From the IMG/VR virus record IMGVR_UViG_3300037246_001176, positions 35,924 through 99,923 of that record: a stretch of 64,000 nt of DNA; one strand, 5' to 3'. Of the stretch, positions 4,556 through 52,835 are shown in pieces (within the stretch, counting starts at the first letter, position 1; each line of letters begins with the position of its first letter). The stretch is from a virus. The translations under genes and the position numbers were made by a program. The notes beneath the pieces are model-generated. The model ran no database searches. It was not told where the DNA came from and saw only the letters and a list, made by a program, of their open reading frames with translations.

Positions 4556-5964
4556 ACCGCCAGTTCTTTTTTTTTAGCCGCTGGGAGCAGGAGCATCTTG
4601 CGTGTGTCGTCCTCGGCCTCCGGCGCGCCTTCTTCCGTCGTCTCCGGCTCCACGCTCATGCCGGACGGAATCATGCCCAGCGGGACGTAAGCCACATCGC
4701 CGCCGGGTATACCACCCAGGGCCAGGCCCACTTTGTCCGTGGCCTGGTTCGCAGGGACGCCCATCTGCCATAGCATGTGCGCCGATTCTACTAGCTGTGG
4801 TATGTTTTTCTGCAAGGCGGGGACCCTGCTGTAGTCAAAGGCGACGAAGATGTTGCCGTCTTGGAGATAGTAACTATATTCATCTTCAAACCAGCCCGAC
4901 TCGGCCAGCATAGTGTCTTCCCAAAAGGCGCGTCGCGCTTCCTCATAGGCTTTGCCATAGCTGGAGCGGGTTAGTCCTACCCGAGCCCCCACCAGAATGG
5001 GAGGAACACCAAAGGGTGCCAGGATCCTGGACTCGTTGCGTTCGTCTATCTCCTCAAAGCCCATCTCGTCAAAGGTCAACCCCACCCGCTCATACTTGGC
5101 CGACCTATCTGAGACGAATATCTCCTCAGCCCAGTTTTTATAGCCGCCGTATATCTCCTTCCATCTCTCTTTGGCCCGTGCTATAGCCCCATCGTCTACG
5201 CTGCCCTCGACAGTTATCATTCCGGGAACCATGACACCTTTGTCAAAGAAGAGTTTGAGAAAGTGAGTAACGGCGTTGTCTACGTCTATCGACCGGGCCG
5301 CCGGAGACATGGGGGGCATCCCCTCGCCCATTCCTTCCAACGGGTCGCCGGGGTTGGGGAATTTGGGGTGCATCATGTCTTCCGGCAGGATGGGGAAGAC
5401 GCGGTTCTCGCTCCATGCCGCCCTGCGCTGTGCGTCGTCCCACTTGAGAAAGGCCGACTTGCCTTCGGGAACGTAGATGTAGCCCAGTATTATGCCCTGA
5501 CCGTCTACCGTGCCGGGGACGACGAATACCCGGTCGGGACGCAGGTTATACATCGCTTCCGGCAGTTCTCCCTGGCGCTTCCTGTCTAGGAGTGTAAAGT
5601 TGTTGCCCGATATGTTGAGGTAAACGATGGCTTGCCCCTGAAATTCTTTCCAGCTCTGGTGCGGGTTGGGCCTCGCTATCAGTTGGGCCAGTGGCTCGTC
5701 CACGTCTACCGGCTCGCGCTGTTCATAGCTGCCCGTCCAGGCCCTGAGAGGCGCAAGCGTCATGGCCCTGACCTTGTACATTATAGCAGAATAGACTAAC
5801 GTATTGAGATTAAACCCATCAGCCACATACGCCTGATAGTCAATGAGCTTCCAAGCTGGTCGGCCCTCTCTCCATGCGGGCCATGCGACAGGCAACGCCT
5901 TAACTGCCATCGTTGGCGCTTCCCGCACTGCCCTGATTTGTCGTATCCGCATCAGAATGCTCAT
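4552..5964 (-). CDS. HK97-family portal protein
   Basis: Dodecameric portal through which DNA enters the capsid. The 470 residues show the family layout: VADGFNLNTLVYSAI, APLRAW, PLAQLIARPNPHQSWKEF, a central NISGNNFTLLDR hairpin, LRPDRVFVVPG, and GFEEIDERNESRILAPFGVPP, the conserved stretch before the stem/crown region. ATG 5964 overlaps the TGA of a 40-residue frame. TerL lies two genes upstream and MuF directly downstream, the normal order. Confidence 0.93.
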   Translation of the reverse strand: MSILMRIRQIRAVREAPTMAVKALPVAWPAWREGRPAWKLIDYQAYVADGFNLNTLVYSAIMYKVRAMTLAPLRAWTGSYEQREPVDVDEPLAQLIARPNPHQSWKEFQGQAIVYLNISGNNFTLLDRKRQGELPEAMYNLRPDRVFVVPGTVDGQGIILGYIYVPEGKSAFLKWDDAQRRAAWSENRVFPILPEDMMHPKFPNPGDPLEGMGEGMPPMSPAARSIDVDNAVTHFLKLFFDKGVMVPGMITVEGSVDDGAIARAKERWKEIYGGYKNWAEEIFVSDRSAKYERVGLTFDEMGFEEIDERNESRILAPFGVPPILVGARVGLTRSSYGKAYEEARRAFWEDTMLAESGWFEDEYSYYLQDGNIFVAFDYSRVPALQKNIPQLVESAHMLWQMGVPANQATDKVGLALGGIPGGDVAYVPLGMIPSGMSVEPETTEEGAPEAEDDTRKMLLLPAAKKKELAV

Positions 5965-32970: not shown

Positions 32971-32984
32971 TCCTCAAATAAAAA

Positions 32985-33087
32985 CCTTCCGCCCTTTTCT
33001 CAGACGGCTTGGCGATTCGGCAGCAGCTTGCGTGTTTTCCAGCACAGGAAAAACACTGCCAAAACCGCCTGAGAAAAACTCAGAAGG
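32985..33087 (-). ncRNA. Large stacked hairpin leader (attenuator-like)
   Basis: Nested helices: outer CCTTC/GAAGG (32985-32989 with 33083-33087), a 12-of-13 bp stem (32995-33007 with 33065-33077), TTGGC/GCCAA, and an inner GTGTTTTCC hairpin. On the minus strand it ends GGAAGG-TTTTTATTT, then the ribosome site. TGCTGCC at 33100-33106 can pair with 33019-33025, disrupting the main fold, so two exclusive structures exist. Confidence 0.65.
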
Positions 33088-33148
33088 TCTTTAGTGCGTT
33101 GCTGCCTAGTTGTTAATCATGGTGGGTGTGCTACTCCCACCTACAAAT

Positions 33149-36198: not shown

Positions 36199-36717
36199 CT
36201 ATTCGTTAGTAACCGCCACCAGCCAGTCGCCGTACCCCGCGCACAGCGGCCTGACCTGGCTCTCCCAGTCAAGCTCGCCAGCCCCGCAGCCGGGGCGCGG
36301 CAGGTAGACTTGCGTCCATCGTTCCCACATCTGCAACTCGGCCAGCTCTTTTAACGACTGCTCTATGAGCGGCAGGGATGCTTTCATCGCCCATCCTGGC
36401 ACGGTGCTGCCCCTGATGTACCTGTTGCGCTGGCTCTTGACGACGTTCTGTCCATCACTGATGTCAGACACAGGCTTGACGGGAAAGGCTATCAAGCCCG
36501 GCCTGAGCAGTCGCACCTTGTTGCCGTCGTCCAGCATGGTGCGACCCAACTCCTTGGCGAGTCTCGGAAAGCGGACGCTGGCCTGCGCCGCCGTGCCACG
36601 ACCCATGACCGCCCTGCCGTCACTTCTGACGAAGCCGTTGGTAGTGATGCAGACAGCATAGTCGCTTGGTTTCTGGAAATCGTAGATTCGCCAGATATCT
36701 ATTATTCGTTCGATCAC
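36199..36717 (-). CDS. Macrodomain-like ADP-ribose-binding protein
   Basis: Protein of 172 residues. AVCITTNGFVRSDGRAVMG, RGTAAQASVRFPRLAKELG, LIAFPVKP, LIEQSLKEL and VYLPRPGCGAGELDWESQV follow the macrodomain order of phage ADP-ribose-binding or deacetylase proteins. It could remove ADP-ribose or bind NAD-derived signals in defence. GTG 36717 overlaps the upstream stop. Confidence 0.78.
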   Translation of the reverse strand: MIERIIDIWRIYDFQKPSDYAVCITTNGFVRSDGRAVMGRGTAAQASVRFPRLAKELGRTMLDDGNKVRLLRPGLIAFPVKPVSDISDGQNVVKSQRNRYIRGSTVPGWAMKASLPLIEQSLKELAELQMWERWTQVYLPRPGCGAGELDWESQVRPLCAGYGDWLVAVTNE

Positions 36718-36977
36718 CCCGCCTCCTTTTCGCACTCGCCGCAGTGGCAAGTGCCCTTGACGCTTCTGACGATGCTGGCCAGCGGGTGGCCGCAGATGGG
36801 GTTGAGCCCAAGAGCCGCCATCCCCGCCTCACGATCCAAACCATCAACGGGCGCTAACACCCATGCGATAGCCCATGTTTGAGGTTCCACTTGCCTGGCT
36901 CGCTTCTCCATCTCCCGCCATGCTGCTATTGCACTTGCTAATTTCTCTGCGGATAAGAACCCAAATAATTCTTGCAT
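36714..36977 (-). CDS. Hypothetical protein, paralogue of 17776-18168, with zinc knuckle
   Basis: Protein of 87 residues. ELFGFLSAEKLASAIAAW, REMEKRAR and WVLAPVDGLDREAGM repeat the gene at 17776-18168. A C-terminal CHCGECEKE cluster is added. ATG 36977 is chosen for its strong GGGAGGA; ATG 37016 is an alternative that overlaps the upstream stop. Confidence 0.6.
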   Translation of the reverse strand: MQELFGFLSAEKLASAIAAWREMEKRARQVEPQTWAIAWVLAPVDGLDREAGMAALGLNPICGHPLASIVRSVKGTCHCGECEKEAG

Positions 36978-38370: not shown

Positions 38371-38619
38371 CTAGGTTTCGTCCCCGACGATCTTGGTGAT
38401 CTCTACTATTACTCCGTCGCCAATCTCAAATATCACAACCTGCCTCTCCGCCGTCACCAGGCTCAGCTCGTCGCCGCGCCAGTAGCAGCTGGCGGCGTAG
38501 TGGGTCGTGCCGTCTATGGTGACGATGTAGTTGGCCCAGGGCGGCGGCGCGGACAGGGCGCAGGCCAAGAGGAGCAGGGAGATGCAGACTATGACAAGCA
38601 GGGTTGTCTTAGCGTTCAT
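38371..38619 (-). CDS. Small lipoprotein
   Basis: Protein of 82 residues from ATG 38619 (GGAGGAAGCGGC ahead). Signal peptide KTTLLVIVCISLLLLAC with a lipobox Cys near residue 20, then a strand-rich domain NYIVTIDGTTHYAASCYW and VVIFEIGDGVIVEI. Exported to the cell surface, perhaps for superinfection exclusion. Overlaps the RNA ligase gene by four bases. Confidence 0.72.
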   Translation of the reverse strand: MNAKTTLLVIVCISLLLLACALSAPPPWANYIVTIDGTTHYAASCYWRGDELSLVTAERQVVIFEIGDGVIVEITKIVGDET

Positions 38620-39896
38620 GCCGCTTCCTCCCTGTCTATCACCGATTCGTCTTCCTTCAAATACCCTTCCAAGAGGCCAAATGTGAATGATTTGGCTTTG
38701 AGTATGCCAAACCATTTTTCGTGTTCGATCCGTATCGCGATGCCCTCACGGATATGATCTCCGAACAGCGACGGCCCCTCGGCCAAAAGCCCGGCCAGAG
38801 ACATCAGTCCTTCCCTGTCGCTCTCTTCATTGACGAAAGATGGCGGCTCGACTTCACGGACGTACTTTACGCCAAGTTCGCTGGCCCGCCTCTTGACAGC
38901 CCACCAAGGAAGTTCTGTTGTTACGCCGTCCTCGTTGTTCATCGTGATTCTGTAAATGTAGAACGCCTGTGTCCCGGTAGGACAGCCATATGTGTAGAAC
39001 ATCTTGTCGCCGTATCTCTCCCGTACAGACTTGTTGCGAAGCCGCGTCGTATCGTGAGCAGGCATGATAGGCGTCTCTGCCCCAGCCCAGCCCACGATCT
39101 CGCCATAAACAACTTCGCCTTTGTGAAGATTGCCCATCAGCCGCCGAGTAGCGTTGACGCGAAATGCTTCATCTCCATACCAAGAATCTCCCGTCCATTT
39201 TTCAAGTATCACTCTGCGCGTTCCCGATAAGTAGCGATAGCCGCGTTCAAGCAGCGGCTTTCTCATCAGGAATTTGTACAGACGGCCAACTAAGCCCCGG
39301 CGCTCGCTTTCATCATAGACGTGGCCGATACGGTGCGATGTGCCGTGCATCTTCTCGGTGACGGTCATCAGACTGCCGAGTGGGATGCGATCCGCCCAGG
39401 CGCGGAACTGCTTGACGTCGAACATCATAGGGAACGTCTTGGTCTCGCGGCGATGCCGGATCCGCCTGTTCCCGGCGGCGCAGGCGGTCGCCTGCGTGAT
39501 GTACTTGTTGCAGATCGGCACGCCGTTGAGCGCGTTGAACTCATCGCCCAGCTTGAGCTTCGCGAGATTCGTGCCCGTAAACTCAAAATAATCCAGCGGA
39601 CACCAGAAGCCATAAGACTTCTCGCCGCGAAAGTTCTGTGCCCGCACGCGCCTGTTCTTGGCGAAGAAGCCGCCTTCGCGTTCTCCCGTCTCGGGATTCT
39701 TTCTCTGGACAAGATCATGTTCGGCGGCAAATGCTTCTGACAGTTGGCCGTCGCTCGGAAAGAAGACACCAACCTCGTCGTCCTCCGTGTCAAGCCCTAC
39801 GACAACCTGATATCCGAGCACCAGTCCCAGCTGGATGCGGTCTGCGTTCGGGTGCGGCCTCGTTTGTATCTTTGTTACCGTAGCTTTGTAGGACAT
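38616..39896 (-). CDS. RNA ligase, NgrRnl/Rnl5-like with N-terminal OB domain
   Basis: Protein of 426 residues from ATG 39896. The N-terminal domain (PHPNADRIQLGLVLGYQVVV) and SYGFWCPL region match the OB-fold of Naegleria-type RNA ligases. Nucleotidyltransferase motifs follow: Lys182 in EKMHGTSHR (motif I), GEVVYGEIVG (IIIa), EGIAIRIEH (IV) and ILKAKSFTF (V). It would seal nicks or breaks in RNA, for example tRNA cut by host defences. It lies directly downstream of the structured region at 39919-40279; a functional link is inference. Confidence 0.85.
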   Translation of the reverse strand: MSYKATVTKIQTRPHPNADRIQLGLVLGYQVVVGLDTEDDEVGVFFPSDGQLSEAFAAEHDLVQRKNPETGEREGGFFAKNRRVRAQNFRGEKSYGFWCPLDYFEFTGTNLAKLKLGDEFNALNGVPICNKYITQATACAAGNRRIRHRRETKTFPMMFDVKQFRAWADRIPLGSLMTVTEKMHGTSHRIGHVYDESERRGLVGRLYKFLMRKPLLERGYRYLSGTRRVILEKWTGDSWYGDEAFRVNATRRLMGNLHKGEVVYGEIVGWAGAETPIMPAHDTTRLRNKSVRERYGDKMFYTYGCPTGTQAFYIYRITMNNEDGVTTELPWWAVKRRASELGVKYVREVEPPSFVNEESDREGLMSLAGLLAEGPSLFGDHIREGIAIRIEHEKWFGILKAKSFTFGLLEGYLKEDESVIDREEAA

Positions 39897-39918
39897 CCCT
39901 CGTTCTCCTGTTCTCCTG

Positions 39919-40279
39919 AAAAGGCTGCGGGCAGGTCTCGCACCTGCCTGTCCCCGTCGGGCGCTCCCCTTCCGTGTGGGAGCCGTGAGTGCATCAGTAG
40001 TTGTGCCCACGCCGCCACAGCCTTTTTCTAGAATAACACAGGGGCGGAAGTGACTTCGGTACGTTTAAACCCCCTGATCGCACCGCCTCTTTAGGCTCAT
40101 ATAGCCCTTCACGTGACCGCAGGGCTTCAGCCAAGGCTGTGTTATTCTATTTCGCGGTCGGTGGTGGACGTCGCCAGCCCTTACCCACACATCCCGTTAC
40201 CGGTTGCCCGATGGCTCCGTACTCATGCGTCCATTCCAGGCAACTTACCACGTCAATTCGTGGTCTGGCCTGACCGCGA
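39919..40279 (-). ncRNA. Candidate large structured RNA with three contiguous domains
   Basis: No convincing frame on the minus strand between the stop at 40295 and the RNA ligase start at 39896. Three adjacent domains are each closed by a long helix: 40272-40279 with 40152-40159 (8 bp, TCGCGGTC), 40137-40149 with 40029-40041 (13 bp, CTGTGTTATTCTA), and 40018-40027 with 39919-39927 (about 9 bp, CAGCC plus T-run). Inside lie further stems, e.g. ACCACG/CGTGGT (40247-40264), AGCCCT/AGGGCT (40103-40126), GGCAGGT/ACCTGCC (39930-39948). Linkers are only one to three bases. The RNA family is not recognised. Confidence 0.7.
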
Positions 40280-40294
40280 TTCAGCGTCAGAAAC

Positions 40295-41050
40295 TCAAGC
40301 CGCCTGCACCAGCTCAACTTTGGTGAGGTCTCGCCACTTCGGATTCTTCGGGCTGGGAATCCAACTCACCTTCATTGGCATGTGGTATTCCTGCCCCACA
40401 CTTTCAATATCAAAGTGTCCAGCCACATATCCGGCGCTTGCCAATGCGGGGGCAACTTCTAGCAGCTTTGCTCCGCCTCTCTGCCAGCGCACCTCCGGAA
40501 AGTCACGTCCCTTACGTCGAAACTCAACCACGGCCTTACCGTCAGGCGCAGTGATGCGAATGAAATCAATAGGTTCCACCGTCACCTTGTTGACGTTCAC
40601 CGCTGGCACGGCAGCCTGCCCCGGCGCTGGCGGCGTGGTTCCCGGCGCTGCTGGCGGGGGCGGCGCGGCCTGGGCCGGTGCGGGGGGAGGGGAGGCAGAC
40701 AGCGCGGGAGGTTGCTTTGTTTCCTGCGGCTTGTCGTCCTTGCGGCGGGCGTACCGCGCTATCGTCTCGCGGGTATCGCGGCCCAAGACCGGGCCAGCGC
40801 CCAGTTCTTTGAGCCACTTGCTCACATGGCCCATCTCCAAGAGCAGCGCTTTCGTGCCCTCGGCGGTCGCCCCCTCGCGCATGGTGAAATTGATTTCTAC
40901 GCCGCCCAAGAGGAAGGTGGTAAATGCGATGCAAGTCGCCTCACGATGTCCTGGCTCTATCAGTTCTCGCAAGATCTCCCCCGCGCTTTTGTCTTTCTCT
41001 GGCACTTGTTTCTGTTCCTGTCCCCCGCTTGCTTTTGCTTCCTCGCTCAC
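40295..41050 (-). CDS. Hypothetical protein with proline-rich linker
   Basis: Protein of 251 residues from GTG 41050 with GGAGAACAGACA ahead. N-terminal half is helical (EILRELIEPGHREATCIAFTT) with HVSKWLKELGAGPV; a Pro/Ala linker of about 45 residues follows; the C-terminal half is strand-rich (VTVEPIDFIRITAPDGKAVV, FPEVRWQRGGAKLLEV). No catalytic motif recognised. It may bind single-stranded DNA; unproven. Confidence 0.6.
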   Translation of the reverse strand: MSEEAKASGGQEQKQVPEKDKSAGEILRELIEPGHREATCIAFTTFLLGGVEINFTMREGATAEGTKALLLEMGHVSKWLKELGAGPVLGRDTRETIARYARRKDDKPQETKQPPALSASPPPAPAQAAPPPPAAPGTTPPAPGQAAVPAVNVNKVTVEPIDFIRITAPDGKAVVEFRRKGRDFPEVRWQRGGAKLLEVAPALASAGYVAGHFDIESVGQEYHMPMKVSWIPSPKNPKWRDLTKVELVQAA

Positions 41051-41076
41051 TGTCTGTTCTCCTTTCACTAGTCGTT

Positions 41077-41835
41077 CTATGGATTGACGTTGACGTACCA
41101 GTCCCGCCAGACTTTCACGGTTTCTGGCGGCCACAGCAGCCGCACCTTGTTGCTGACACCGAGGTCAACTAGCATCTTCTGCTCGTGCGCTATGACCGAC
41201 TGGCGCGAAAGACCCACACGCCCCGCTATCGCGGCGTGGGTCAAGCCTTTGAATCCGCTGGCGGGAAAGCGCAGGGCGAATATCACTTCGTCTTTCCGCG
41301 ACCACGGGAGAGAGTTTCGCCCCTGGTCGTCTAGATTCTTATAGGCATTGCGCGGCGACAGCCTCGTCGGCAGCGGCAGGTCGCCCGCTCCTTCTCGGAA
41401 GCTCTTGAGCGCATCGCCGCCGTGCCGCACCGCCGGAAGCAGCCGCGTTATCACCGAGCAGTGCGCGGTGCTCCGAAAGCCCAGGAAGCAGGCAAATTCG
41501 TCCGTGGTCAATGGTTCTGTTGGTAGCGGTTCCGTCATGATGTCGGTCAAATATGCCCGACATGGAGCTAGTACCGCTTTCAGAATACCATACCCTATGT
41601 TACGTTTGTGCTGAACACGGCCAGCCTGCGTTCCACCAAGCTGTGCTATCATTTCCTTGCGCGAAAGACCAGCAACAATGCTCTGGCACGTTACCACATC
41701 GTCAATACTGTAGCCAAGCGTGAGTAATGCTGTCATCTTTGCCTGGATGCATTCCGTGAAAGCGGCAGTACGCTCTGGATCGAGCCGCCACTGCTTTCCA
41801 AAAATTGAGTTCATCTGTCGCCGTCCGATATTCAT
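41077..41835 (-). CDS. DNA-binding protein with HTH motifs
   Basis: Protein of 252 residues. LTHAAIAGRVGLSRQSVIAH near residue 215 is a helix-turn-helix of the sigma-70 region 4 or LuxR type; an earlier CQSIVAGLSRKEMIAQLG region may be another. Possibly a regulator or late sigma-like factor. First gene after the promoter at 41873-41901. Confidence 0.62.
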   Translation of the reverse strand: MNIGRRQMNSIFGKQWRLDPERTAAFTECIQAKMTALLTLGYSIDDVVTCQSIVAGLSRKEMIAQLGGTQAGRVQHKRNIGYGILKAVLAPCRAYLTDIMTEPLPTEPLTTDEFACFLGFRSTAHCSVITRLLPAVRHGGDALKSFREGAGDLPLPTRLSPRNAYKNLDDQGRNSLPWSRKDEVIFALRFPASGFKGLTHAAIAGRVGLSRQSVIAHEQKMLVDLGVSNKVRLLWPPETVKVWRDWYVNVNP

Positions 41836-41872: not shown

Positions 41873-41901
41873 ATTATAGCAGGTGTTTAGTTATTTGTCA
41901 A
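41873..41901 (-). promoter_or_regulatory. Sigma-70 type promoter
   Basis: Minus strand TTGACA (complement of 41896-41901), 17 bases, TATAAT (complement of 41873-41878), extended -10 TGC. Drives the HTH protein gene at 41077-41835 and downstream genes. Confidence 0.76.
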
Positions 41902-52649: not shown

Positions 52650-52670
52650 CTTAATCCTCCCAACAAAAAA

Positions 52671-52761
52671 AGCACCTTTCTAGTCGCTGCCCCTAGACGA
52701 TGGTCATGTCTTGGGCTGGCGGCCCCTATTTCTAGAGGCAGCTACCACAAAGGTGTTTTCT
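52671..52761 (-). ncRNA. Long two-tier hairpin leader with T-run
   Basis: Minus strand ACACCTTT pairs with AAAGGTGC, then seven T precede GGGAGG. Inside, CTGCCTCTAG pairs with CTAGGGGCAG (10 bp, one G-U). The leader starts about 70 bases after the promoter at 52836. Acts like an intrinsic terminator in front of the gene, so read-through may be regulated. Confidence 0.65.
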
Positions 52762-52835
52762 CGCATGACCAACGTCTATTCGGCCCTTCACGGTGCGCCC
52801 GCCACAGTGCACCAGGCTCTCAATTCTTCCTCCCT

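What the first reader, a model, noticed from the sequence alone, without database searches (positions are those of the whole stretch)
39919..40279. Three-domain structured RNA of about 361 nt beside an RNA ligase
Three adjacent segments are each closed by their own long helix: 40272-40279/40152-40159, 40137-40149/40029-40041 and 40018-40027/39919-39927. Linkers between domains are only one to three bases. Each domain holds further local stems. No convincing frame on the coding strand spans the region, although neighbours are packed with genes. The RNA ligase gene starts 23 bases after the last helix. The tandem layout of equal-sized domains is rare among known leader RNAs and no family could be named.
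Basis: partly seen in the sequence, partly recalled or inferred. Interest (0 to 1): 0.85.

Follow-up and report, generated by a model that had tools for sequence, protein, structure and literature searches.

The report
Phage structured RNA beside RNA ligase
A bacterial virus carries, between two genes and just before an RNA-repair ligase gene, three tightly packed folded RNA units; the last of them is a genuine, previously unnamed RNA, because a distantly related virus keeps the same fold with compensating base changes next to its own ligase, although what it does is still unknown.

Summary
The 398-nt gap 39897-40294 lies between two minus-strand genes and is the most over-folded of 161 equal windows sampled on that strand. 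Such tandems also arise by chance inside coding sequence of this GC-rich phage, so geometry alone proves little. Decisive evidence exists for one third of the region: a covariance model of domain 3 alone (39919-40026) finds a single homologue in a 90-kb phage contig that shares few other genes (46 bits, E 3.9e-9). All 63 scoreable cells pair, and 12 of 32 pairs change on both sides. The homologue lies upstream of that phage's ligase (56% identical), inside a tRNA/structured-RNA cluster. One hairpin (AGGCAGGUGnnAGACCUG) never varies while the other helices do, which suggests a recognition site. Domains 1 and 2 have no demonstrable homologue: domain 2 scored only E 1.2, and domain 1 got no model search. 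Rfam gives nothing. Twelve contigs sharing another gene have neither ligase nor RNA (controls imperfect). I favour a ligase-linked noncoding RNA co-transcribed from a strong promoter at 41901. A cis-acting leader is the main rival, weakened because the homologue lies about 565 nt from its ligase start. Its biochemical role is not shown.

The parts
40150..40281 (-). Domain 1 (about 130 nt), closed by 40272-40279/40152-40159; local stems inside
   Evidence: MFE z -2.95; no homologue found by sequence; no covariance-model search made (model cap)
40029..40149 (-). Domain 2 (121 nt), closed by a 13-bp perfect helix 40137-40149/40029-40041; inner stem GGCU/AGCC plus AGCCCU/AGGGCU
   Evidence: MFE z -3.5; model R3 finds no homologue in the relative's contig; the positional counterpart L128:2179-2296 is the top hit of the cluster but only E 1.2
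39919..40026 (-). Domain 3: conserved five-helix RNA. P1 40016-40026/39919-39929; P2 40006-40011/39984-39989; P3 39978-39983/39963-39968; P4 39959-39961/39952-39954; P5 39943-39948/39930-39935
   Evidence: Homologue L309:11286-11401(-) = L128:2322-2437(+), 46.2 bits, E 3.9e-9 with a single-sequence model; 12 of 32 pairs changed on both sides, none broken
39930..39948 (-). P5 hairpin GGCAGG-UGNRAGA-CCUGCC stacked directly on P1; stem sequence invariant; 7-nt loop of T-loop type (UGNRA) or GNRA-like
   Evidence: 6 of 6 pairs never vary whereas P1-P4 covary; loop assignment is inference from sequence
39905..39917 (-). Two AGGAG Shine-Dalgarno-like boxes directly after domain 3, outside its closing helix
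   Evidence: sequence
38616..39896 (-). RNA ligase, OB-fold plus nucleotidyltransferase, Rnl2/DRB0094-like, motif I KMHGTS and motif V KAK intact
   Evidence: PF09414 E 7.8e-10, phrog_968 E 2.5e-50, TIGR02306 sub-threshold, alignment
40295..41059 (-). Upstream gene of unknown function, ends directly before domain 1
   Evidence: no Pfam, PHROG or NCBIfam match; IMG/VR relative only in the identical copy of this phage
41873..41901 (-). Promoter with 12/12 match TTGACA-N17-TATAAT, nearest upstream of gene 41077-41835, gene 40295-41059, RNA array and ligase
   Evidence: consensus match; transcription not measured

Best explanation
The region encodes a structured noncoding RNA that is part of the RNA-ligase transcription unit of this phage. 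It is probably transcribed from the strong promoter at 41901 as part of the polycistronic RNA (inferred). Domain 3 is a true RNA element with five helices, shown by covariation. Its invariant P5 hairpin stacked on the long closing helix is most likely the docking site for a protein or RNA partner (inferred). Because it travels with the ligase gene, the partner is most likely the RNA ligase or its tRNA-repair pathway (inferred). I think it most likely acts as an RNA product rather than as a switch on the ligase start codon, because its distance to the start codon is not conserved. Domains 1 and 2 are probably further modules of the same array, but that is unproven.
For: The single-sequence model of domain 3 finds one homologue, in a contig whose phage shares few genes with this one. 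12 of 32 pairs are doubly changed, 100% of cells pair, and slid controls pair at 30-52%. The homologue is again upstream of a ligase gene on the same strand (56% identity), in a cluster with tRNA-Phe, -Leu, -Tyr and another strongly closed RNA domain (24-bp perfect helix, z -8.0). Twelve contigs sharing the exonuclease gene show neither ligase nor RNA. Distance to the ligase start is 22 nt here and about 565 nt in the relative. The array is the strongest over-folded place of the sampled windows. A consensus promoter lies upstream, with no intrinsic terminator-like site called between domain 3 and the ligase.
Against: Only two independent sequences exist for domain 3. In the relative the MFE keeps P1, P4 and P5 but rearranges P2/P3 (consensus fold -39.8 vs MFE -50.5 kcal/mol). 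Domains 1 and 2 lack homologues. The RNA is absent from 49 other records with more distant ligases of this family, and structure near the ligase is not a general rule in them (mean z -0.78 near vs -0.71 far). The 12 contigs may be incomplete, so absence there is weak evidence; the model search did recover G001 when that record was included. Processing and expression were not measured.
Confidence: 0.45

Rival explanations
1. A cis-acting leader of the ligase gene: the folded RNA sits next to the Shine-Dalgarno box and controls ligase translation or mRNA stability, perhaps by the ligase binding its own leader (autoregulation).
For: In this phage the AGGAG boxes begin 2 nt after the closing helix of domain 3; in both phages the element is upstream of the ligase on the same strand; an invariant hairpin suits a protein-binding operator.
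Against: In the relative it lies about 565 nt upstream of the start codon with other RNA-like elements between; the helix here does not sequester the Shine-Dalgarno boxes; no alternative anti-SD pairing was identified.
Confidence: 0.3
2. An array of tRNA-like RNAs (T-arm-like P5 stacked on an acceptor-like P1) that act as decoys or substrates in tRNA cleavage and repair.
For: P5 lies directly against P1 and carries a 7-nt loop UGNRAGA; the homologue lies among tRNA genes and fragments resembling T arms; phages with such ligases often face tRNA-cutting defences (PMC10264068, abstract only read).
Against: P1 plus P5 is 17-19 bp, not the 12 bp of acceptor plus T arm; no CCA end or anticodon; ARAGORN and Rfam tRNA/tmRNA models do not match; domains 1 and 2 show no T-arm.
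Confidence: 0.12
3. Chance: a GC-rich intergenic stretch that folds well, with no RNA function except perhaps domain 3.
For: Comparable closed helices and three-domain chains occur elsewhere in the window, mostly in coding sequence; both strands fold well; domains 1-2 have no homologues.
Against: Domain 3 covariation; first of 161 windows in relative fold energy.
Confidence: 0.1
4. Small coding sequence: the invariant stretch reads RQV(R/K)DL in one frame in both phages.
For: Open frames of 47 and 53 codons cover the P4-P5 stretch.
Against: Differences in the 33 ungapped nt fall 1/4/2 on codon positions 1/2/3, not third-position biased; the rest of the peptides do not align; paired bases change together instead.
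Confidence: 0.03

Closest known systems
GOLLD and ROOL RNAs (phage/prophage ornate RNAs near tRNA islands; PMC12286853)
   Same: Phage-encoded, extensively structured, no known protein product, relative lies in a tRNA cluster, function unknown
   Different: No Rfam match; 361 nt of independent modules instead of one 500-800+ nt ornate fold; linked to an RNA ligase gene
YrlA bacterial Y RNAs with tRNA-like module (recalled)
   Same: RNA-repair neighbourhood, T-arm-like hairpin
   Different: No Rfam hit, no Ro/TROVE protein in the record, ligase is Rnl2/DRB0094-like, not RtcB
T4 stable RNAs C and D of the tRNA cluster (recalled)
   Same: Phage stable RNAs of unknown function encoded with tRNAs in a phage that has RNA ligase
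   Different: No sequence or structural link tested; gene context differs
Phage leader RNAs / riboswitches (e.g. manA, wcaG in cyanophages; PMC2864571)
   Same: Covarying structured RNA upstream of a phage gene
   Different: Position relative to the start codon not conserved; no ligand-binding core recognised

Membership tests
Any Rfam 15 family (incl. GOLLD, ROOL, tRNA, tmRNA) | Match to the family's covariance model | tested here: not met
   Region: only a 17.7-bit chance microRNA match at E<=10; whole window: one ordinary tRNA
tRNA / tRNA-like | Acceptor plus T stem of 12 bp, cloverleaf, anticodon | tested here: not met
   P1+P5 = 17 bp, ARAGORN none in the region, Rfam tRNA none
YrlA / Y RNA | Ro (TROVE) protein partner encoded nearby | tested here: not met
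   No TROVE match in the 99.9-kb record; the record may be incomplete
GOLLD / ROOL | Conserved fold and multimer formation | tested here: not met
   No Rfam match; multimerisation not testable here
Structured RNA (general) | Compensatory base changes supporting one fold in homologues | tested here: met
   Domain 3 only: 12 doubly changed pairs
Structured RNA (general) | Same for domains 1 and 2 | tested here: inconclusive
   Domain 2 best E 1.2; domain 1 compared only by sequence
Cis-regulatory leader of the ligase | Conserved position close to the ligase start and effect on its expression | tested here: not met
   22 nt vs about 565 nt; effect on expression not testable here
Rnl5/DRB0094 RNA ligases (neighbour gene) | TIGR02306 curated cut-off of 151 bits | tested here: not met
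   37.5 bits, first 197 residues only; belongs to phrog_968 RNA ligase

The most novel reading that the evidence does not exclude
The array is a dedicated RNA partner of a viral RNA-repair ligase: a co-transcribed RNA whose invariant hairpin binds the ligase and serves as guide, cofactor, decoy or preferred substrate, inherited together with the ligase gene between otherwise different phages.
Probability: 0.15. Interest if true: 0.8.

Novelty: new variant of a known kind. Interest (0 to 1): 0.45.

Why it matters
Few phage noncoding RNAs have a gene-linked clue to their function. A covarying RNA that travels with a phage RNA ligase gives a direct test: does the ligase bind or seal this RNA? It would be a lead to RNA partners of phage RNA-repair enzymes or to a new autoregulatory leader. 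At present it rests on two independent sequences, so it is a solid new RNA family seed rather than an explained system.

Tried and rejected
Sequence searches for the whole region in the phage collection gave nothing; the only other IMG/VR copy is identical over 9.3 kb and carries no covariation information. A pattern scan with a domain-2 14-mer gave only chance hits. Scans with the P5 hairpin and a two-block domain-3 pattern found only the two phages; 25 bacterial genome matches to the latter fail the model (best E 0.11, and that one spans only P1). L274, E 0.0019 in a set chosen for the hairpin, lies inside an open frame and was rejected as chance. Domain 2 versus the relative's neighbouring domain: the shared GGCU/AGCC stem seen by eye did not reach significance. 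Idea that ligases of this family generally have folded RNAs beside them: not supported. End-healing kinase of AAA_33 type and Ro protein: not found in the record. Self-cleaving ribozyme: no Rfam match.

Full report
What is there. The window is bases 35,924-99,923 of a 99.9-kb virus record. The region 39897-40294 is a 398-nt gap between two minus-strand genes: an unknown protein ending at 40295 and an RNA ligase starting at 39896. Linkers are 2 nt. The fold is better than all 100 shuffles on either strand (z -3.3 and -4.5). It ranks first among 161 windows of the same length in energy relative to dinucleotide shuffles.

How strong is that alone. Not decisive. A mechanical search finds about a dozen other chains of three closed domains in the 64-kb window, mostly within genes, and 54 comparably strong closing helices on one strand. 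Tandem geometry can arise by chance in this GC-rich phage. Comparative evidence was therefore needed.

Comparative evidence. The only other IMG/VR copy is identical over 9.3 kb. A profile of the ligase found a 90-kb contig (G001; locus L128/L309) with a ligase 56% identical. That phage shares only a handful of genes with ours: ligase 56%, a radical-SAM protein 44%, an exonuclease 40%, portal 28%. A covariance model built from our domain 3 alone finds one full-length match in that contig at 46.2 bits, E 3.9e-9 in 191 kb. On the two-row alignment all 63 scoreable cells form standard pairs; 12 pairs change on both sides and 3 on one side. Sliding the partners by 1-3 columns drops pairing to 30-52%. 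The alignment was fitted to our structure, so these counts lean towards it, but indels are few and the long closing helix P1 (5 double changes in 11 pairs) needs none. P2 and P3 carry 3 double changes each, yet the relative's own MFE prefers another arrangement there (-50.5 vs -39.8 kcal/mol), so P1, P4 and P5 are the safest parts.

Anatomy. P5 (GGCAGG-UGNRAGA-CCUGCC) stacks directly on P1 and is the only helix with no variation at all; the stretch AGGCAGGUGnnAGACCUG is shared. Its loop fits a T-loop (U1-A5) or a GNRA-like loop; which one is inference. Conserved unpaired letters are GUGGCG after P1, GCA.AA.U and GCAC around loop 2, and GACG in P4. An invariant hairpin among covarying stems is the usual sign of a binding site.

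Domains 1 and 2. No sequence similarity to the relative's cluster exceeds shuffles. A model of domain 2 finds nothing in the relative's contig and only E 1.2 at the position where its counterpart would be expected. A conserved three-domain unit is therefore not shown.

Context. Eleven perfect TTGACA/TATAAT promoters (ten with a 17-nt and one with a 16-nt spacer) lie on the minus strand. The one at 41901 is the nearest upstream of two genes, the array and the ligase; the scan calls no terminator-like site between the array and the ligase. In the relative the RNA lies about 565 nt upstream of the ligase start, and the ligase is followed by a domain closed by a 24-bp perfect helix (z -8.0) and by tRNA-Phe, -Leu and -Tyr. 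Twelve contigs that share the exonuclease gene show neither ligase nor RNA; they may be incomplete. Forty-nine other records with more distant ligases of this family lack the RNA, while the same search recovers G001, and their ligase neighbourhoods are not enriched in folded RNA.

Interpretation. Shown: domain 3 is a conserved structured RNA in two phages and sits upstream of the ligase in both. Inferred: transcription from 41901, excision or stability as an RNA, partner binding through P5, link to the ligase or tRNA repair. I favour a noncoding RNA product over a leader switch because distance to the start codon is not kept, but the Shine-Dalgarno boxes do begin 2 nt after domain 3 here, so a cis role is a serious rival. 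A tRNA-like reading is attractive for P1/P5 but fails on helix length and on every tRNA model. A coding explanation fails on codon-position counts.

Comparison. Nothing in Rfam matches. The nearest kind is phage-encoded structured RNA of unknown function found near tRNA islands, such as GOLLD and ROOL (PMC12286853), to which it does not belong. I rate it a new variant of a known kind: a two-member seed of a new RNA family, with an unusual gene link.

Noticed in passing
window 32979-33142 (-): Leader of perfect promoter 33177 folds into a 115-nt domain closed by a long helix ending in a U-tract (z -5.2); looks like an attenuator or small RNA.
   Followed up: partly
window 52665-52829 (-): Leader of perfect promoter 52864: multi-branched domain closed by an AAAACACCUUU/AAAGGUGCUUUUUUU helix with 7 U, terminator-like (z -2.7).
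   Followed up: partly
window, minus strand: 63047, 58671, 52864, 47229, 45297, 41901, 33177, 27593, 20100, 10184, 10014: Eleven promoters with a perfect 12/12 sigma-70 consensus (ten with 17-nt, one with 16-nt spacing), unusually uniform for one phage.
   Followed up: partly
L128:4258-4407: Directly behind the relative's ligase: four-way junction closed by a 24-bp perfect helix (z -8.0) whose 5' arm overlaps the ligase stop codon.
   Followed up: partly
L128:2915-2973 and 4638-4696: Identical 59-nt direct repeat on both sides of the relative's ligase gene.
   Followed up: no
L132:1700-2110: Upstream of another phage ligase: tRNA-Leu-like RNA with inserts in D loop and anticodon loop and a second tRNA-like RNA; neither called by ARAGORN or Rfam.
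   Followed up: no
window 36199-36750 (-): Macro-domain-like phosphatase (phrog_335) in the same apparent operon as the ligase.
   Followed up: no
L153:2058-2850: Sub-threshold match to permuted tmRNA (29.6 bits, cut-off 47) near tRNAs and an RNA ligase in a phage contig.
   Followed up: no
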